A DNA stretch of 45,000 nucleotides, from IMG/VR virus record IMGVR_UViG_3300044998_001139, positions 1-45,000 of that record; one strand, written 5' to 3'. A program made the translations under genes and the position numbers. Shown here one piece after another: positions 1,985 through 8,498 of this stretch. The notes beneath the pieces were generated by a model. That model saw nothing but the letters and a program-made list of their open reading frames with translations. It ran no database searches and had not been told where the DNA came from. This DNA is from a virus. Numbering within the stretch: position 1 is the stretch's first letter; every line of letters begins with the position of its first letter.

Positions 1985-2360
1985 GGGGCTGCATTGGTTT
2001 CGACGTGGGTTCGGGCACGCAGCAGGGCATGTCGAGGTTCTGTCACCTCGTTAAACCGCAGAAAAAAAGTAACTGCAAACGACGAACGTTTCGCACTCGC
2101 CGCCTAATCCGGCGAGCCTCGCAACAGTCGGCCTGTGGGCTGGGTGAGGGTGGCTGCAAAGCCGTCCTGACTGCGAGGGAATTCACATAGGCTGGCTGTC
2201 AGGCGGGCAACTTGCTTGGCAGCGAGACTCAAGGTTGCTGGCTTGGCTTGCAGCGTGTCGCTGCGCGGCTTGTCAGGCGAGATCCAATCAGACGACTACA
2301 CATGTAGAACTGCGCGAAGAAGGCTTGCGGACGGGGGTTCGATTCCCCCCAGCTCCACCA
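1985..2360 (+). ncRNA. ssrA: Transfer-messenger RNA (tmRNA)
   Basis: This is a one-piece tmRNA of about 376 bases that rescues stalled ribosomes with SmpB. The 5' end GGGGCUG pairs with the 3' CAGCUCC that precedes the encoded CCA, forming the seven-pair acceptor stem with one G-U. A T-arm with GGTTCGATTCC is visible near 2335-2346. The tag frame starts at a resume codon GCA at 2075 and reads ANDERFALAA, ending with TAA at 2105-2107, the tag form known from beta-proteobacteria. Short open frames across this gene are not real. The 3' end is a common integration site for genomic islands. The gene here is intact and followed by a terminator. Confidence 0.97.
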
Positions 2361-2368
2361 CTTTTCAG

Positions 2369-2399
2369 AAAACCAACCGTTCTCGGTTGGTTTTTTTTC
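2369..2399 (+). terminator. Intrinsic terminator of ssrA
   Basis: The stem aaaaccaacc / ggttggtttt (2369-2378 and 2385-2394) has a six-base loop and continues into a run of eight Ts. It begins nine bases after the CCA end. Confidence 0.92.
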
Positions 2400-2617
2400 G
2401 CCCGTTCTTCCCAGTGTTGGCGCGGGTTCGGGCCTCGCTGCGACGGACGCTGCCGGCCTAGACAGCCCCGTTTCGGGTGGTTTTTCGTTCTCAGTGCCCG
2501 CCTATTCTCTGTTTCTGCGAAGGGGGACTTCGCACCCGACCCCGCATTGGCGCGGGTTTGCGGCGGCCTGTTCGGCACGGAAGCCGCCTTCACGCAGGCG
2601 CCCCGCCCCGGACGGGG
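2400..2617. other. Noncoding junction between ssrA and the minus-strand operon
   Basis: I find no convincing gene here. A 12-base direct repeat TTGGCGCGGGTT occurs at 2417-2428 and 2547-2558. A weak terminator-like CCCCGTTTCGGGT followed by a T run lies near 2466-2488. A GC hairpin (gccccg / cggggc, 2600-2618) touches the stop codon of the QueC-like gene and could end its transcript. The stretch is probably the left junction of the island. I see no remnant of an integrase. Confidence 0.5.
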
Positions 2618-4729
2618 CTACTCGTTCACAATGGGGCGGACATCCCAGGTGATGGGCACCCCGGGCCGGTAGACGACCTCGTTGCCAAATTTGATGCTGG
2701 CCTTCAGGTGTTCAGCCAGCGGCTTATCCCATTTCTCAATCTGCTTGATCGCCCGGTTGACGGCGTTGCGGAAGGCGTCCCGGACGTTTTTCCGTTTGTC
2801 GCCAGCCTTGCGAAGCTTGCCGCCCTTGCCGACACCTGCCGTGATCGCATCAGCGATCTGGGCCATCTCGTCCTCAATTTCCTCCACACGCTGGTGATCG
2901 CCGTCTTGCTCGGCTTCAGCCTTCTCGGTAACCAGTGACTGGTACTTGGCTCGGTATTGCTCGACTGCCTTCCTGTCCACCACGACTCCCGCGTTGCCCA
3001 GCGGTGCTCCGGTCGTCACCTGAAAACCTTCCTCGATGTCATCGTGCTCCAGCCCGGAATTCGCGTGATCGGCGACGCCCAGCGCATAGCCGCATACGAC
3101 TTCGTAGACGGACGCTTCCCGATCCGGATGCGCCAGCAGCAGGTTGATGTATTCCGCGCCCTTGTCCACGCCTATGATATTGATCGTGTTCCCTCGATTG
3201 AACCGAGCCTCCCAACCGCCTCCGCGCTTGCGAAAGAAGTTATCTGGCTGCTTTTCCTTCGGCGACACCGTTGGCACCGAGATCACCGATGCGGATTCAT
3301 GTACGGTGCGCAGCAAGGCATCGCCCGGCATGGTGCGCTCCCGGATCGCCGTGGCATGGCGGCGAACCATCTCGTCTAACGCGGCGTTCACCTCGCTGGC
3401 GTGCCGCTTGTAGAGATCGAAAACGAGCTGGGCAGCCTGTGCAGTGCTTCCGCCGATGAAGCGCAGCACCCGATTCACCTCGGCGTATTTGGCGAGGAAC
3501 TGCCCTACGTTCTCCAGCGATCTCACTTGGTTGGCCCGCTCCAAGTAGGATGCGGACATGATCTTGTCGTCGTCCTTGTTCCGGCTCTGGGTGAACACGT
3601 CCGTCTTGTAATGCTCAATTGGATCGTACTGATCGGCCTTGGCGGCGATGACGGCAAAACGCCGGTCGATGCATTGCGAGCATAGGCCGCAGTGGGTGTG
3701 CTGATTCGTCATCTCCCACGTGTGGGTGCAGGTCATCGAGTGCTTGATGAGGTCGGCGCAGCCCAGCTTGACGATCTGTTCGACGACTTCGGCCTTGGTC
3801 TTCCAGATATACGGGTTCTCGACCGTGAATGGCGCTTCAGCCACCAGTGTGATGATGTCCTGGAACCCCTTCATCACCTTGGGGTGTGTTGTCCGCGTGG
3901 CGCGACCACCGACCACTTGAGCGCACACCGGCAGATTCAGGCTGATCACACCGTTCTCGTAGAAACGCACGCTGCTTAGGCCGAGCATTTTGGCGATGGT
4001 CGCGCCAATCGAGACGAACAGGAACGAGCGGCTGCGCTGCGTGTATTCCCGGTTCAGCGGCTTCTTCTTGTGAACGCGCACGCTGATCTGATGCGGCGCG
4101 TTGTCTCCCGCTTTCTGCGCCAGCAGATCTTGAAGCGTCTTGTGCCGGGTGTTGAGCTTGGGCGTGGCCTTGTGCGTGACCAGCACTACACGCCGCCTCT
4201 GGCCCAACACTTCGTCCAGCGCGCCTGCCAGTGAGTCCAAACCACCGGAAAACATCACCACCTGATCCGGTTTGCCATACAGGGTCTGTGCGTCGTTGAA
4301 CTCCAGGTAGTCCTGGAACGAATGATCCTGTTCCAGCTTGACGAAGCTGAACGCGTAGTTGTCGTCCGAGAGGAAGCCCAGCGTCGAGGTGAGCGCGTTC
4401 TTCACCTCCTCGCCGTTCCAGAAATCCGGGTTGCGCACCGGCACGACGAAATGCAGATCGCGCCGCCATCCATCGCCGAAGCTGTCAACGTCGTCTGCAC
4501 CGCGCAGAATCACCTGATCGGCGCTGTAGACGTAGGCGGCGATTTCCAGCAGGTCATGGAACTTGGTCGGCACCGTACCGAACATCTTGCTGTGGATGTC
4601 CTCGATGCGCAGCGTGACGTTGCCTTCTCCTTTCACGCCAGAGAGCCGAAGGCGAATTTCGTTCTTCGGATCGTCGCTGATTCCCTTGGCCGAGGCGTTT
4701 CCGCAAATGACGAATTTCTTAGTTTGCAC
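2618..4729 (-). CDS. QueC-like PP-loop enzyme with C-terminal fusion; putative defence protein
   Basis: The product has 703 residues, about three times the length of housekeeping QueC, which makes 7-cyano-7-deazaguanine. Residues 1-150 form an N-terminal extension. The PP-loop nucleotide-binding motif SGGLDSLAG is at 161-169, and an ENG...LNLP segment typical of QueC relatives is at 258-266. C334, C347, C350 and C353 match the QueC zinc site. The region after about 490 resembles a small wHTH-like module (GGWEARF...KGAEYINLLLAHPDRE), followed by a charged coiled-coil segment (585-630) and a helical tail. I know that C-terminal pattern from large regulatory proteins of other bacteria. The other queuosine genes (queD, queE, queF) are not nearby, and an 11-base overlap couples the gene to the Met-Gly protein upstream. 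Family knowledge points to antiviral relatives (QatC, type IV CBASS QueC-like). The function here is inferred. Confidence 0.8.
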   Translation of the reverse strand: MQTKKFVICGNASAKGISDDPKNEIRLRLSGVKGEGNVTLRIEDIHSKMFGTVPTKFHDLLEIAAYVYSADQVILRGADDVDSFGDGWRRDLHFVVPVRNPDFWNGEEVKNALTSTLGFLSDDNYAFSFVKLEQDHSFQDYLEFNDAQTLYGKPDQVVMFSGGLDSLAGALDEVLGQRRRVVLVTHKATPKLNTRHKTLQDLLAQKAGDNAPHQISVRVHKKKPLNREYTQRSRSFLFVSIGATIAKMLGLSSVRFYENGVISLNLPVCAQVVGGRATRTTHPKVMKGFQDIITLVAEAPFTVENPYIWKTKAEVVEQIVKLGCADLIKHSMTCTHTWEMTNQHTHCGLCSQCIDRRFAVIAAKADQYDPIEHYKTDVFTQSRNKDDDKIMSASYLERANQVRSLENVGQFLAKYAEVNRVLRFIGGSTAQAAQLVFDLYKRHASEVNAALDEMVRRHATAIRERTMPGDALLRTVHESASVISVPTVSPKEKQPDNFFRKRGGGWEARFNRGNTINIIGVDKGAEYINLLLAHPDREASVYEVVCGYALGVADHANSGLEHDDIEEGFQVTTGAPLGNAGVVVDRKAVEQYRAKYQSLVTEKAEAEQDGDHQRVEEIEDEMAQIADAITAGVGKGGKLRKAGDKRKNVRDAFRNAVNRAIKQIEKWDKPLAEHLKASIKFGNEVVYRPGVPITWDVRPIVNE

Positions 4730-5507
4730 TGGTGCGCGCCCCCAACTTCAATTCATCCTTCATCTTCTTCAGCGCGAAGCCAGCAAAGCCATCGGACGAT
4801 TTTCTTGAAATGTCACCGCCTTCCTCGTAGCGGTGTTTGGAAAACCATTGGGACGAGAAATCTCGAACGATCACCGATGCTTCCCACGTATGCGTGCTCA
4901 GCGCGTGATCGAAAAGCGCTTTCTGGTTCATCGTCGCAAAGCGCATTCCTTCACCCACATGGGTCGCCAGCGTCTTGGACAGGAAATATTGGAGGCTCTG
5001 GTTGGCCAGCCGGTCGAAGAACGAACGCGACAGATCGCCGAATTCCTTTTGCGTTCCGAGTTTGGAAAGCGCCGCACGCATCGTGTCCTTGTCGTTTGGG
5101 AATAGACCGTTAAAGTGGGGCTGAAGCGCGTCGGCCACCGCGCCGACCAGCGCGCGTCCGGCGATTTCGGCAAGATCGGAGCGCCTGCGGGAATTGTCGA
5201 CGGCACGATCCAAGGCCTCGGTGAGGCTCGCCGTCACATCGGGCAGTGTTGCGTCGTCCGGCAAGGAAATGCCGACGGATCGAAGATGGGCGTAGAGATC
5301 ATTCTTCTTGGCGGCAATGGCCAATTGCGTCATCAGCCACACGGCCTCCGTGTACCCCTTGTCATCCATCACGAACGAGAACGCCTTTTCTGCGGCGGCG
5401 ATGGTGGCGTTGGCAACTTGGGACACGTCTGCGCCAGAGGCGATCAGGCCGACGACCTCCTTCCATGCTTTCGTCCTTGGCAGTACCCCGAGCCGAACGT
5501 GCCCCAT
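4719..5507 (-). CDS. Conserved Met-Gly-starting partner of the QueC-like enzyme, function unknown
   Basis: This 262-residue protein is soluble and mostly helical, without a signal peptide or membrane segment. It starts MGHVRLGVLPRTKAW, and I recall similar N-termini in proteins encoded beside QueC-like genes. A SRSFFDRLANQSLQYFLSK segment lies at about 160-178, and a conserved-looking end contains VRDFSSQWFSK, GFAGFALKKMKDELK. No catalytic motif is recognisable. AGGGG lies about eight bases before the ATG. The end overlaps the QueC-like gene by 11 bases, which implies translational coupling and a shared role. Removal of the initiator Met would expose Gly2. In the type IV CBASS and Qat systems, QueC-like enzymes have been reported to act on an N-terminal glycine of a partner. 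That makes this protein the likely substrate, which is inference. Confidence 0.6.
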   Translation of the reverse strand: MGHVRLGVLPRTKAWKEVVGLIASGADVSQVANATIAAAEKAFSFVMDDKGYTEAVWLMTQLAIAAKKNDLYAHLRSVGISLPDDATLPDVTASLTEALDRAVDNSRRRSDLAEIAGRALVGAVADALQPHFNGLFPNDKDTMRAALSKLGTQKEFGDLSRSFFDRLANQSLQYFLSKTLATHVGEGMRFATMNQKALFDHALSTHTWEASVIVRDFSSQWFSKHRYEEGGDISRKSSDGFAGFALKKMKDELKLGARTSAN

Positions 5508-5542
5508 TCAGGATTCCCCTTGTTGAGATCAGTGCATCGCGA

Positions 5543-5776
5543 TCACTCGTGCCGTTTCACGATCACGATGCTCCGGGCTTTTTTTTCTTCTTTTCTCAAA
5601 TACCCCTTGCGTACCAGCTGCGCGATTTGTTCATGAGCGCTGGCGTGGCTGATGCCCAGCGCTTCGGCCAATTCCTTGACGGTAGGCGGCAGGCCCGTGC
5701 TGTCGAAGATTTGGCAAATCGCCCTCAGCGTTCTGGTCTGCGGCTCAGTGATGCCTTCTGTCTTGCGCTTGCTCAT
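5543..5776 (-). CDS. LexA-type winged-helix regulator without peptidase domain
   Basis: The 77-residue protein matches only the DNA-binding domain of LexA. It has a first helix (TEPQTRTLRAICQIFDS), then GLPPTVKELAEALGISHAS (28-46), a recognition-helix region AHEQIAQLVRKGYL (47-60) and a basic wing. The S24 self-cleavage domain of LexA (Ala-Gly site, Ser/Lys dyad) is missing, so RecA-driven cleavage cannot switch it off. GAGGAG sits seven bases before the ATG (5784-5789). It is the first gene of the minus-strand operon, 35 bases ahead of the Met-Gly protein gene. A palindrome within its promoter is the obvious binding site for autorepression. Alternatively it could respond to a ligand or to the partner proteins. 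Confidence 0.8.
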   Translation of the reverse strand: MSKRKTEGITEPQTRTLRAICQIFDSTGLPPTVKELAEALGISHASAHEQIAQLVRKGYLRKEEKKARSIVIVKRHE

Positions 5777-5801
5777 GGCATTGCTCCTCGCCGATTTCGG
5801 G

Positions 5802-5830
5802 AATATATGACCTGATAAACATCAGGTCAA
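5802..5830 (-). promoter_or_regulatory. Promoter with palindromic operator for the QueC-like operon
   Basis: On the minus strand TTGACC (5830-5825) and TATATT (5807-5802) are separated by exactly 17 bases. A perfect inverted repeat TGACCTGAT-GTTT-ATCAGGTCA (5808-5829) fills the spacer and overlaps the -35. The transcript would start near 5795, about 20 bases before the regulator's ATG. A repressor bound here would block RNA polymerase directly. The first gene product is the likely ligand. I found no second copy of this palindrome in the window. Confidence 0.85.
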
Positions 5831-5865
5831 TGGAGGCGACCCAACGCAGAAAATCTCTGGTCTGA

Positions 5866-6390
5866 CTACGGGCGCGAGGCGCGGCGCCAGTCCCAAGGAG
5901 CTATCGGATCGGCATCGCGCCACAGTCCGGCGTGGCGGCCGCGCGCCTCCTGTTCGGCGAACTCGTAGGCACCGGCATCCTCGGCGGACTGCTCCTGTGC
6001 GTACTGCCGGTACCACCAAGCCATCCCAGCTGTGATCTGGGCCAGCCCTGCGTCGAGTGTCTTCGGACACGTGCTTGCGGCGCAGGAGGGGTCGGCGACT
6101 AGCACCTTGCCCACGAGCCGCCCGTAGCGGTCGCGCTTGCTGCTCATCACGACGACGTCTTTGCCGAATACGAGGTCGGACATTGACGCCTTGGATCTCT
6201 GCCCGAACGCCTGATTCTTCTCCGGCGCATCGATCCCAGCCACCCTGATCTTGTGCTGCGTCCTATCAGCATCAAGCACGGTGACCGTGTCCCCATCGGC
6301 CACGCCAACCACTCTGCCCATGATGGTCTCCGCGCTGGCACTCCACGCAGCCAGGGCGATCAACGTCGCCCAGAAAAATCTCCTCGAAAT
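5866..6390 (-). CDS. Secreted thermonuclease (staphylococcal-nuclease-like)
   Basis: This is an SNase-fold, calcium-dependent sugar-nonspecific nuclease of about 174 residues. GRVVGVADGDTVTV (about 25-38) carries the metal Asp, and IRVAGIDAPE (48-57) carries the catalytic Arg49 and Glu57. DRYGRLVG (87-94) supplies Arg91, matching R35, E43 and R87 of the staphylococcal enzyme. Two cysteines (CAASTC, 103-108) could form a disulfide. The export signal RRFFWATLIALAAWSASA fits cleavage before ETIMG, so the protein is probably periplasmic. No ATG, GTG or TTG lies in the right place: the frame gives ATT at 6388-6390, preceded by GGGAGA, while a TTG at 6363 would remove the signal's basic start. A longer form from 6609 would have an unlikely 70-residue lead overlapping the opposite-strand gene. 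The product is confident; the start is not. Confidence 0.8.
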   Translation of the reverse strand: MSRRFFWATLIALAAWSASAETIMGRVVGVADGDTVTVLDADRTQHKIRVAGIDAPEKNQAFGQRSKASMSDLVFGKDVVVMSSKRDRYGRLVGKVLVADPSCAASTCPKTLDAGLAQITAGMAWWYRQYAQEQSAEDAGAYEFAEQEARGRHAGLWRDADPIAPWDWRRASRP

Positions 6391-6487
6391 CTCGCTCTCC
6401 CTATCTGATGCACGCTGAAACGGGATACCCCGACCGCCCTGTGTGCATATTCTTCGTAACGGTCTGACAACTTTACTGGCTACCGAA

Positions 6488-6676
6488 ATGACCGTCGAAC
6501 AAACACTCCCTGAATTGATGTCCCCTCGCCAACGGGCGCGCGAGGCCGCGGAAATCATCGCAACCGCCATCGCACGCTTGCATTCCACGCGCCCCAAAGA
6601 TGGCGACATTCCTCTTGGCTTCTCGGCACCCGAGCGCGTTCATACGAACCCCTCTACAAAAGGAGTTTTGAAATGA
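6488..6676 (+). CDS. Small conserved protein at the head of the recombinase cassette
   Basis: The 62-residue acidic-to-neutral protein ([20 protein letters not shown]...) has a predicted helix rich in Ala and Arg (ARHSTRP-like end) and no known domain. The ATG at 6488 is chosen because a GTG at 6443 would add an unconvincing leader; neither has a strong Shine-Dalgarno. The stop overlaps the next start (ATGA at 6673), so it belongs to the DUF2924-recombinase operon. Its role is unknown; a helper of integration or excision is a guess from position. Confidence 0.55.
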
Positions 6677-7134
6677 ACGCACCCGCAACACCCCTCTCGC
6701 TGGCGGCGCAAATCGCTAATCTGCCGAAGCTGCCCATGAAAGCTCTGTGGGCTATCTGGGACAAGTATTTCCCGCAGCGACCGCCGCACCATAACCGGGC
6801 TTATGTCGAAGGCCGCGTCGCCTACAAAATTCAAGAGGAAGCGCTGTGCACTACGCTACTTGTCCAAAAACAAATGGCGCGGATTGGCGAAGCCCAATCC
6901 AAGATCAAGACGCAGCGCGGCGTCGAAGTTCAGGTCATCCCCGGCACTGTGTTGGTGCGGGAGTTTGACAGCCGCGAACATCGCGTCACCGCGCTGGCAG
7001 ACGGATCTTTCGAATACGAAGGCCGCCGGTTCAAAAGCCTGTCAGCCGTTGCCCGCCACATCACCGGCACCCAGTGGTCGGGTCCCCTGTTTTTTGGGCT
7101 TACCAAGAACAAGCGGCGAGGAGGCGGGAAATGA
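6673..7134 (+). CDS. DUF2924 family protein
   Basis: The 153-residue product matches the DUF2924 pattern. An N-terminal [21 protein letters not shown] segment is followed by the conserved [19 protein letters not shown] strand-turn and [20 protein letters not shown]. It closes on WSGPLFFGL and a basic tail. AAAGGAG precedes the ATG. DUF2924 genes are characteristically found directly upstream of large serine recombinases in proteobacterial prophages, as here, where the stop overlaps the recombinase start. The C-terminal basic segment suggests DNA binding. A role as recombination directionality factor is possible but is inference from linkage only. Confidence 0.85.
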
Positions 7135-8498
7135 ATAGCGTTGTGACCAAAAAGCGCTGCGCCGTCTACACCCGTGTCTCCACCGACGAGCGCCTGGATC
7201 AATCCTTCAACTCTCTTGATGCCCAGCGCGAAGCAGGCCATGCCTACATCGTGAGCCAGCGTGCCGAGGGCTGGTTGCCGGTCGCCGATGACTACGACGA
7301 CGGCGGCTACTCAGGCGGCAACATGGAACGCCCGGCATTGAAACGGCTGATGGCCGACATCATGGCCGACCAGATCGACATCGTGGTCGTCTACAAGATC
7401 GACCGCTTGACACGCAGCCTGGCCGACTTCGCCAAGCTGGTGGAGCTCTTCGAGCGCCACAAGGTGTCGTTCGTGTCGGTGACACAGCAATTCAACACCA
7501 CCACGTCGATGGGGCGGCTGATGCTGAACATCTTGCTGTCCTTCGCCCAGTTCGAGCGCGAGGTCACCGGCGAGCGCATCCGCGACAAGATCGCCGCCAG
7601 CAAGCGCAAGGGTCTATGGATGGGGGGATACACGCCGCTGGGCTACGAGGTCAGAGACCGCAAGCTCGTTGTTGTGGAAAAAGATGCGGAGGTCATCCGG
7701 CGAATCTTCATGCGATTTACCGAGACACGCTCCATCACAGACATCGTTCGCGAAATGGCCTTGGAGGGAATCACCACCAAGCCCAACCGCCTGAAGGATG
7801 GCCGCGTGCGTAACGGCACGCCAATGGACAAGAAGTACATCTCCAAGGTACTGCGCAACCCGATCTACGTCGGCGAAATTCGCCACAAGGGAGCGGTGTT
7901 TGCCGGGCAACACGAGCCAATCATCACGCGCCAGCTGTGGGACCGAGTGCAGACCATCCTTGCCGAAGATGCCCATCAGCGCATGGGCAAGACCCAGACC
8001 CGGCACAAGACCGACGCCTTGTTGCGCGGCCTGATGTTCGGCCCTGATGGCGGCAAATACCACATCACCTACAGCAAGAAGCCATCCGGCAAGAAGTACC
8101 GCTACTACATCCCCAAGGCAGACAGCCGTTACGGCTACCGCAGCAGCGCCACCGGGATGATCCCGGCCGACCAAATCGAGGAGGTGGTGGTGAACCTGAT
8201 TGTGGGGGCGCTCCAGTCACCAGAAAGCATCCAGGGCGTCTGGAACGCGGTGCGCAGCAAGTACCCGGAGATCGACGAGCCCACGACCTTGCTGGCCATG
8301 CGCCATCTCGGAGAGGTCTGGAAAGCCTTGTTCCCCGCTGAGCAGGTGCGGCTGGTCAATCTGCTGATCGAGCGCGTCCAGCTTCTCTCCGATGGCGTCG
8401 ACATCGTCTGGCGCGAGTCGGGATGGCGGGAACTGGCCGGTGAGTTGCAGGCGGACAGCATCGGCGGCGAACTGCTGGAAATGGAGATGGCCCCATGA
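7131..8498 (+). CDS. Large serine recombinase (phage integrase)
   Basis: The product has 455 residues. The N-terminal resolvase domain (about 8-155) has YTRVST with nucleophile Ser17. It also has KIDRLTR with the active-site arginines (92, 95) and [15 protein letters not shown] near its end. A recombinase domain follows (about 165-270, [23 protein letters not shown], then [12 protein letters not shown]). The family catalyses attP x attB integration by double-strand cleavage and rotation. The zinc-ribbon region (about 300-330, [14 protein letters not shown]) lacks the usual cysteines, as in a known subgroup. ATG 7131 follows AGGAGG and overlaps the DUF2924 stop. The target site is unknown. It is the only integrase seen, so it probably inserted the prophage. 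Confidence 0.93.

What the first reader, a model, noticed from the sequence alone, without database searches (positions are those of the whole stretch)
2618..5830. Three-gene QueC-like / Met-Gly protein / LexA-type operon: putative undescribed defence or protein-modification system
Seen: a minus-strand operon with coupled translation, encoding a stand-alone LexA-type wHTH, a 262-residue Met-Gly protein and a 703-residue QueC-like enzyme with intact PP-loop and zinc cysteines. No queuosine pathway genes are near. Known: QueC-like enzymes are parts of Qat and type IV CBASS defence. Here the QatA ATPase, the QatD TatD nuclease and the CD-NTase are all absent, so it is not a standard copy of either. 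Location between ssrA and a prophage, near a nuclease and an hsdR, fits a defence island. Inference: the enzyme attaches a deazaguanine-type group to its partner, which acts in phage defence.
Basis: partly seen in the sequence, partly recalled or inferred. Interest (0 to 1): 0.87.

Follow-up and report, generated by a model that had tools for sequence, protein, structure and literature searches.

The report
Prophage-borne QatBC-like immune module
A family of bacterial viruses carries, next to the gene they use to insert into the chromosome, a small self-regulated operon whose enzyme looks built to attach a chemical group to the tip of a partner protein, probably to protect the infected cell from other viruses; it is a cousin of the known Qat defence system that lacks two of its four genes and has the modifying pair.

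Summary
The three genes are real, intact and linked: L (LexA-type wHTH, 77 aa), B (262 aa, Met-Gly) and C (703 aa, QueC fold). The order L-B-C recurs in about 20 loci of several genera; the B-C pair recurs in 96 of 106 loci, with tightly correlated divergence (r=0.94). C is a sister clade of QatC with the same active-site residues (T278/T280, PP-loop, zinc cysteines) plus an extra C-terminal domain. B is a remote QatB homologue whose N-terminus, MGHxRLGxLPRTxxW, is the most conserved stretch of the protein. QatA and QatD are absent from all 162 loci searched. The setting is not a host defence island: the operon is the attL-end cargo of a ~52-kb prophage integrated in ssrA, beside its serine integrase. 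A palindromic operator inside the only promoter, unique in the prophage, marks L as a likely dedicated repressor. The cassette is fixed in the window's phage lineage (27/27) but rare in a sister integrase lineage (3/80), where other PADLOC families sit nearby: cargo-like behaviour. Best reading: a prophage-encoded QatBC-type protein-modification module for superinfection immunity. Function and chemistry are inferred; CDG as the donor is doubtful.

The parts
2618..4729 (-). C: QatC-like PP-loop enzyme, 703 aa, with extra C-terminal domain
   Evidence: hhalign to QatC 100% prob; Foldseek to QatC 9y01_B E 2.9e-20, TMt 0.77
4232..4249 (-). PP-loop SGGLDS (C residues 161-166)
   Evidence: S161, G162, G163, D165, S166 invariant in 32/32 relatives and 12/12 QatC
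3881..3898 (-). TRTTHP motif (C residues 278-283), the QatC-type substrate-pocket threonines
   Evidence: T278 28/32 (Ser in the rest), T280 32/32; T278/T280 essential in QatC (PMC13279940)
3671..3730 (-). zinc site C334-C347-C350-C353, followed by IDRR
   Evidence: all four Cys invariant in 32/32 and 12/12
2621..3274 (-). C-terminal extra domain of C (residues 486-703), possibly winged-helix plus coiled coil; replaced by PhoB-type wHTH or a DpnII/MboI-type nuclease domain in relatives
   Evidence: no Pfam family for the window's own version; homology to the PhoB-type version only weakly supported (hhalign 16%)
4719..5507 (-). B: QatB-like helical partner, 262 aa, Met-Gly-His N-terminus
5463..5507 (-). 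conserved N-terminal tail of B, MGHVRLGVLPRTKAW (putative modification site Gly2)
   Evidence: lowest-entropy 21-residue window of the protein starts at residue 1; residues 1-9 mostly pLDDT <50 (flexible)
5543..5776 (-). L: stand-alone LexA-type wHTH, 77 aa
   Evidence: LexA_DNA_bind 51 bits; present upstream of B in the close loci, not found in the divergent ones
5802..5830 (-). promoter TTGACC-17-TATATT of the L-B-C operon
   Evidence: only sigma-70-type match in 2300-6700
5808..5829 (.). palindromic operator TGACCTGATAAACATCAGGTCA overlapping the promoter
   Evidence: 1 match, 0 expected; palindrome, sometimes with one imperfect arm position, upstream of L in 19/19 loci; no second site with <=5 mismatches in 55.6 kb
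2361..2617 (.). conserved noncoding block between C and attL, ending in a terminator hairpin
   Evidence: no Rfam family; covariation does not support an RNA fold
2351..2360 (+). putative attL core AGCTCCACCA at the 3' end of ssrA (tmRNA 1985-2360); attR-like AGCACCACCA at 54678-54687 of the 55.6-kb record
7074..8498 (+). large serine integrase of the prophage (context of the cassette)
   Evidence: phrog_95, 371 bits
6673..7134 (+). small phage gene that accompanies the integrase (context)
   Evidence: phrog_11806, unknown function

Best explanation
The operon is a prophage-encoded, autoregulated QatBC-type protein-modification module. C binds B, uses ATP (PP-loop) to activate a small carboxylate, and couples it to the free amine of Gly2 of B after removal of Met1. 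The modified B, or the modified B-C complex, acts against superinfecting phages and so protects the lysogen and its resident prophage. L represses the operon through the palindrome that overlaps its only promoter. Shown here: the gene set, homology to QatB and QatC, conservation of catalytic residues and of the Gly2 tail, prophage location, absence of QatA and QatD, conserved operator. Inferred: the modification itself, its donor, the antiviral role, and repression by L.
For: C is a sister clade of QatC (99/92 support) and matches the QatC crystal structure over about 475 alignment columns; diagnostic QatC residues, including T278/T280 and R76/W88/R90, are conserved. B matches a QatB profile collinearly over 163 columns (score 40.4; best of 20 column shuffles 21.4; reversed 16.9). 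B and C divergence is tightly correlated (Mantel r 0.94). MGH tail nearly invariant from Betaproteobacteria to Leptospira. Literature: QatB-QatC without QatA/QatD protects E. coli from lambda, and Gly2 and PP-loop mutants abolish qatABCD defence (PMC13279940). Cargo behaviour: fixed in one phage lineage (27/27), but in only 3/80 and 1/15 (plus one partial C match) loci of two sister integrase lineages, with PADLOC families such as Orf5, RmrA, HEC-06 and PDC-S68 in the integrase flanks of the former. Operator and promoter.
Against: No functional test exists for any member. Foldseek of the B model did not find QatB among its best 50 matches although the QatB-QatC entry is in that library, so B is at best a remote relative. 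Its tail is about 12 residues, against 30-90 in many QatB. Fixation in the window's phage lineage beside the integrase is also what a phage core function would show. The chemistry of QatC itself is unresolved.
Confidence: 0.6

Rival explanations
1. B-C serves the phage's own life cycle (for example control of integration or excision, lysogeny maintenance, or modification of a phage or host protein at induction) and is not a defence against other phages.
For: Always present in the window's phage lineage (27/27 integrase loci with enough upstream DNA); integrase lies 0.5-4.6 kb away in 83 of 106 loci; C-integrase divergence correlates (r 0.62) about as well as integrase-Sak4 (0.56).
Against: Absent from most members of two sister integrase lineages, so dispensable for phages of that type; its nearest relatives are a defence pair; the operon has its own promoter and unique operator, separate from phage control.
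Confidence: 0.22
2. A sub-case of the best explanation: the chemistry is exactly type IV CBASS deazaguanylation, with C conjugating 7-carboxy-7-deazaguanine (CDG) from the host queuosine pathway to Gly2 of B.
For: QueC fold with intact PP-loop and zinc site; 13 of 14 carrier genomes encode canonical QueC above cut-off; Gly2 substrate logic shared with Cap9/CD-NTase (PMC11996544, PMC13279940).
Against: The Tyr/Asp pair that holds CDG is replaced by the QatC Thr/Thr pair (PMC13279940); one carrier (G340, 5.5 Mb, completeness unknown) has no QueC or QueD match and no convincing QueE.
Confidence: 0.3
3. L-B-C is an autoregulated toxin-antitoxin-like or addiction module whose main role is prophage maintenance.
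For: Small repressor plus apparently autoregulated operon; coupled genes; location at a prophage end.
Against: L is missing from divergent loci and from Leptospira while B-C persists; no toxin fold was recognised in B; C is an enzyme of the QatC clade.
Confidence: 0.1
4. C makes preQ0 for 7-deazaguanine DNA modification that shields the phage from restriction.
For: Phages do carry preQ0 genes (PMC13329287); PHROGs names a related family 'QueC-like queuosine biosynthesis' (phrog_1550).
Against: C falls with QatC, not QueC; QatC did not restore queuosine in a queC mutant (PMC13329287); the only recurrent partner is B.
Confidence: 0.03

Closest known systems
Qat (qatABCD) anti-phage system, core pair QatB-QatC
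   Same: QatC-clade enzyme with the same diagnostic residues; partner with Met-Gly N-terminus, a conserved Pro/Trp tail motif and a helical body; coupled B-C gene order; QatBC alone is enough for lambda defence (PMC13279940)
   Different: No QatA or QatD; tail motif MGHxRLG instead of MGTS and much shorter; C carries an extra 150-250-residue C-terminal domain; dedicated LexA-type regulator in one clade; carried by serine-integrase prophages; separate clade in the tree; below the NCBIfam QatC cut-off
Type IV CBASS Cap9 / CD-NTase deazaguanylation
   Same: QueC-fold ligase plus a partner with a Met-Gly N-terminus
   Different: No CD-NTase found in the cassette and no match of B to one; C is far larger than Cap9 (about 185 aa) and has Thr/Thr instead of Tyr/Asp in the base pocket
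Canonical QueC (preQ0 synthase)
   Same: Rossmann PP-loop core, zinc site
   Different: QatC-type motifs, extra N- and C-terminal domains, no queuosine genes beside it
RexAB and BstA type prophage exclusion systems
   Same: Defence genes carried by a prophage and used in the lysogen (functional analogy only, from general knowledge and titles)
   Different: Unrelated proteins and mechanism

Membership tests
Qat system (qatABCD) | QatC-type QueC-like enzyme | tested here: met
   sister clade, not inside the sampled QatC; 222.8 bits against the NCBIfam cut-off of 280
Qat system (qatABCD) | QatB partner with an essential N-terminal glycine | tested here: inconclusive
   profile homology supported against shuffled and reversed controls, no fold hit; Gly2 invariant but motif MGH, not MGTS
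Qat system (qatABCD) | QatA KAP-family ATPase in the operon | tested here: not met
   none in 162 loci and the 55.6-kb record; control found it in 12 of 13 canonical loci
Qat system (qatABCD) | QatD TatD-family nuclease in the operon | tested here: not met
   none; control found it in 13 of 13
Type IV CBASS | CD-NTase whose N-terminal glycine is modified | tested here: not met
   B has no Pfam, NCBIfam or PADLOC CD-NTase match
Type IV CBASS | Cap10 (TGT-like) partner | not tested
   conserved neighbours were clustered but no Cap10 model was run
Queuosine / preQ0 synthesis (QueC) | QueC equivalog and neighbouring queD/queE | tested here: not met
   28.5 bits against a cut-off of 150.3; the neighbours identified are phage genes
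LexA | LexA DNA-binding domain plus S24 peptidase | tested here: not met
   DNA-binding domain met (51 bits), no peptidase in 77 aa
Anti-phage defence system | Protects cells from phage | not testable with these tools
   needs plaque assays; only homology, cargo pattern and neighbouring PADLOC families are on hand
Temperate phage cargo | Lies between att sites of a prophage with integrase and virion genes | tested here: met
   (att sites inferred from sequence)

The most novel reading that the evidence does not exclude
These phages carry a self-contained protein-conjugation immune pair that uses a donor other than CDG on an MGH-type glycine, so that QueC-fold ligases make more than one kind of N-terminal modification, and the C-terminal domain of C (wHTH-like, PhoB-type wHTH, or nuclease) is a swappable targeting or effector module doing the job of QatA/QatD.
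Probability: 0.3. Interest if true: 0.82.

Novelty: new variant of a known kind. Interest (0 to 1): 0.62.

Why it matters
What QatC attaches, and how a modified QatB stops phages, are stated open questions in the 2026 structural work (PMC13279940). This family is a natural minimal version: the same active site, no QatA or QatD, a short and almost invariant substrate tail, and a C-terminal domain that differs between lineages. Comparing it with Qat should show which residues set the donor and where effector function lies. It also shows that a QatBC-type pair travels as prophage cargo, apparently under its own repressor, and is missed by present annotation: B has no Pfam or PHROGs family, and C is below the QatC cut-off.

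Tried and rejected
Host defence island: rejected, because C ends about 260 bp from the 3' end of ssrA or tRNA-Ala(CGC) in many loci, prophage genes follow, and an att-like repeat lies at 54.7 kb. B-C as an obligate part of every serine-integrase phage: suggested by 27/27 in the window's lineage, then weakened by 3/80 and 1/15 elsewhere. B as QatB by fold: Foldseek gave nothing; only the profile comparison supports it. C-terminal domain of the window's C as a PhoB-type wHTH: plausible by eye, hhalign only 16%, left as inference. Noncoding block as an RNA: no Rfam match and no covariation support. E. coli genomes: no match. Phage records: only two weak QueC-like hits. First attempt to compare the slot next to the primase failed because few loci share it. 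Nearby hsdR: not found. Literature searches for a phage-borne QatBC pair found none in the held library.
Full report
What is there. L is a LexA-type DNA-binding domain without peptidase; C carries the QueC domain and matches PADLOC QatC at 4e-60, but scores 222.8 bits against the NCBIfam QatC cut-off of 280; B matches no Pfam family.

Conservation. A scan of GTDB genomes gave 31 loci. About 20 of them hold all three genes in the same order with near-constant spacing, in Burkholderiales and other Betaproteobacteria, Xanthomonadales and Desulfobacterota. A profile scan of IMG/VR gave 68 loci with C down to 36% identity. Over 106 loci with C, 96 have B; most of the rest are contig edges or remnants. 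L027 has a B with an internal deletion, and L028-L030 hold pieces of C, so the cassette also decays. In a phylum-wide sample the B profile matched 2 of 397 Pseudomonadota genomes besides the seed genome, so it is rare.

B. The N-terminus MGHxRLGxLPRTxxWxxVV is the most conserved 21-residue window of the protein (mean entropy 1.19 against 1.90 elsewhere; M1-G2 in 34/34, H3 in 33/34). It is kept in a Leptospira noguchii plasmid protein that is only about 21% identical overall (MGHERLGILPKTRSW). The AlphaFold model is all-helical (pLDDT 82.9), with residues 1-9 mostly of low confidence. Against QatB from canonical qat loci, hhalign aligns 163 columns collinearly (score 40.4); 20 column-shuffled controls reach at most 21.4 and the reversed control 16.9. 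Foldseek did not list QatB among its best 50 matches. I read B as a remote QatB homologue; the fold evidence is missing.

C. The core aligns with QatC at 100% probability, and the model matches the QatC crystal structure (9y01_B, E 2.9e-20, TM 0.77 on the target). A tree separates the phage family plus Leptospira from 14 QatC sequences (99/92). PP-loop, zinc cysteines, D71, R76, W88, R90, ENG, T280, H282 and RR are invariant in 32/32; T278 is Thr in 28 and Ser in 4. T278/T280 are the positions that replace the CDG-binding Tyr/Asp pair in QatC and are essential there (PMC13279940). C has an additional C-terminal domain: PhoB-type wHTH (PF00486, up to 38.8 bits, cut-off 26.2) in four relatives, a DpnII/MboI-type nuclease domain (PF18742, 38.3 bits, cut-off 27) in Leptospira, and an unassigned wHTH-like plus coiled-coil domain in the window's clade. 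A canonical Bradyrhizobium QatC is fused to a TatD domain. This makes the C-terminal position look like a slot for DNA-related modules; that is inference.

Missing Qat genes. QatA and QatD queries hit none of 162 loci nor the 55.6-kb record, but recovered QatA in 12 and QatD in 13 of 13 canonical control loci.

Setting. The window lies in a 55,605-base IMG/VR record. Phage genes include a serine integrase, Sak4, primase, major head and tail proteins. In many relatives C ends about 260 bp from the 3' end of tmRNA or tRNA-Ala(CGC), and an att-like AGCACCACCA with a second terminator lies at 54,678. The cassette is therefore inside the prophage, at attL. Its integrase lies 0.5-4.6 kb away in 83 of 106 loci, and in all five loci drawn from the genome searches that were examined over 20 kb.

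Regulation. The only sigma-70-type promoter match in the region, TTGACC-17-TATATT at 5802-5830 on the minus strand, contains the palindrome TGACCTGAT-N4-ATCAGGTCA. The palindrome is upstream of L in 19/19 loci examined, sometimes with a small imperfection, including Desulfobacterota loci where its distance to L differs, and it is unique in the prophage. L is the obvious candidate repressor; binding was not tested.

Cargo or core? In the window's own integrase lineage, 27 of 29 loci with more than 2 kb upstream have the cassette, and the two without are the 49-56% identical outliers. In two sister lineages it is found in 3 of 80 (B and C) and 1 of 15 loci, plus one partial C match. The integrase flanks of the first sister set hold matches to PADLOC families such as Orf5, RmrA, HEC-06 and PDC-S68 (63 representative ORFs; only 25 of 60 matching families were shown, and some, such as a methyltransferase, may be ordinary phage genes). 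This pattern fits defence cargo better than a core phage function, but fixation in one lineage leaves the latter open. B and C divergence correlate at r 0.94, C and integrase at 0.62.

Donor. 13 of 14 carrier genomes have canonical QueC, but one (G340) has no QueC or QueD match and no convincing QueE; its completeness is not told, and the QueD model also missed two carriers that do have QueC. With the Thr/Thr pocket this makes CDG doubtful as the general donor. The QatC reaction itself has not been reconstituted (PMC13279940).

Verdict. A prophage-borne, probably autoregulated QatBC-type module, a new variant of a known kind. Protein modification at Gly2 and superinfection immunity are the best-supported inferences, not demonstrated facts.

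Noticed in passing
window 2361-2617: A noncoding block of about 240 bp between C and attL is 82% identical on average across 14 prophages of different hosts and ends in a terminator hairpin like that at the displaced host end (54.7 kb); the phage may carry a replacement ssrA/tRNA terminator. The rest of the block is unexplained.
   Followed up: partly
G000 (L038 10519-14390), record positions about 50.5-54.4 kb: The attR end carries HsdS, HsdM, a WYL-type regulator and a SIR2-like ORF (partly masked; named by eye from the translations), a second possible defence cargo at the other prophage end.
   Followed up: no
L033 7207-9851 (Leptospira noguchii plasmid): B-C pair whose C ends in a DpnII/MboI-type nuclease domain, downstream of an IS982 transposase.
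   Followed up: partly
L150 1348-3477 (Bradyrhizobium plasmid): Canonical QatC fused to a TatD domain, that is, a QatC-QatD fusion.
   Followed up: no
L037 1004-6757 (Bradyrhizobium USDA 123 plasmid): QueC-like gene with a glycine-rich Met-Gly partner (MGSGSFGGGSGSF...), a 1041-aa protein and an ASCH-domain protein; very long branch in the tree, possibly another QueC-family conflict system.
   Followed up: no
window 6673-7134: phrog_11806 protein of unknown function recurs directly beside the serine integrase in most loci; possibly an integrase accessory factor.
   Followed up: no
window 5866-6609: Staphylococcal-nuclease-like protein recurs between L and the integrase in the window's clade only.
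   Followed up: partly
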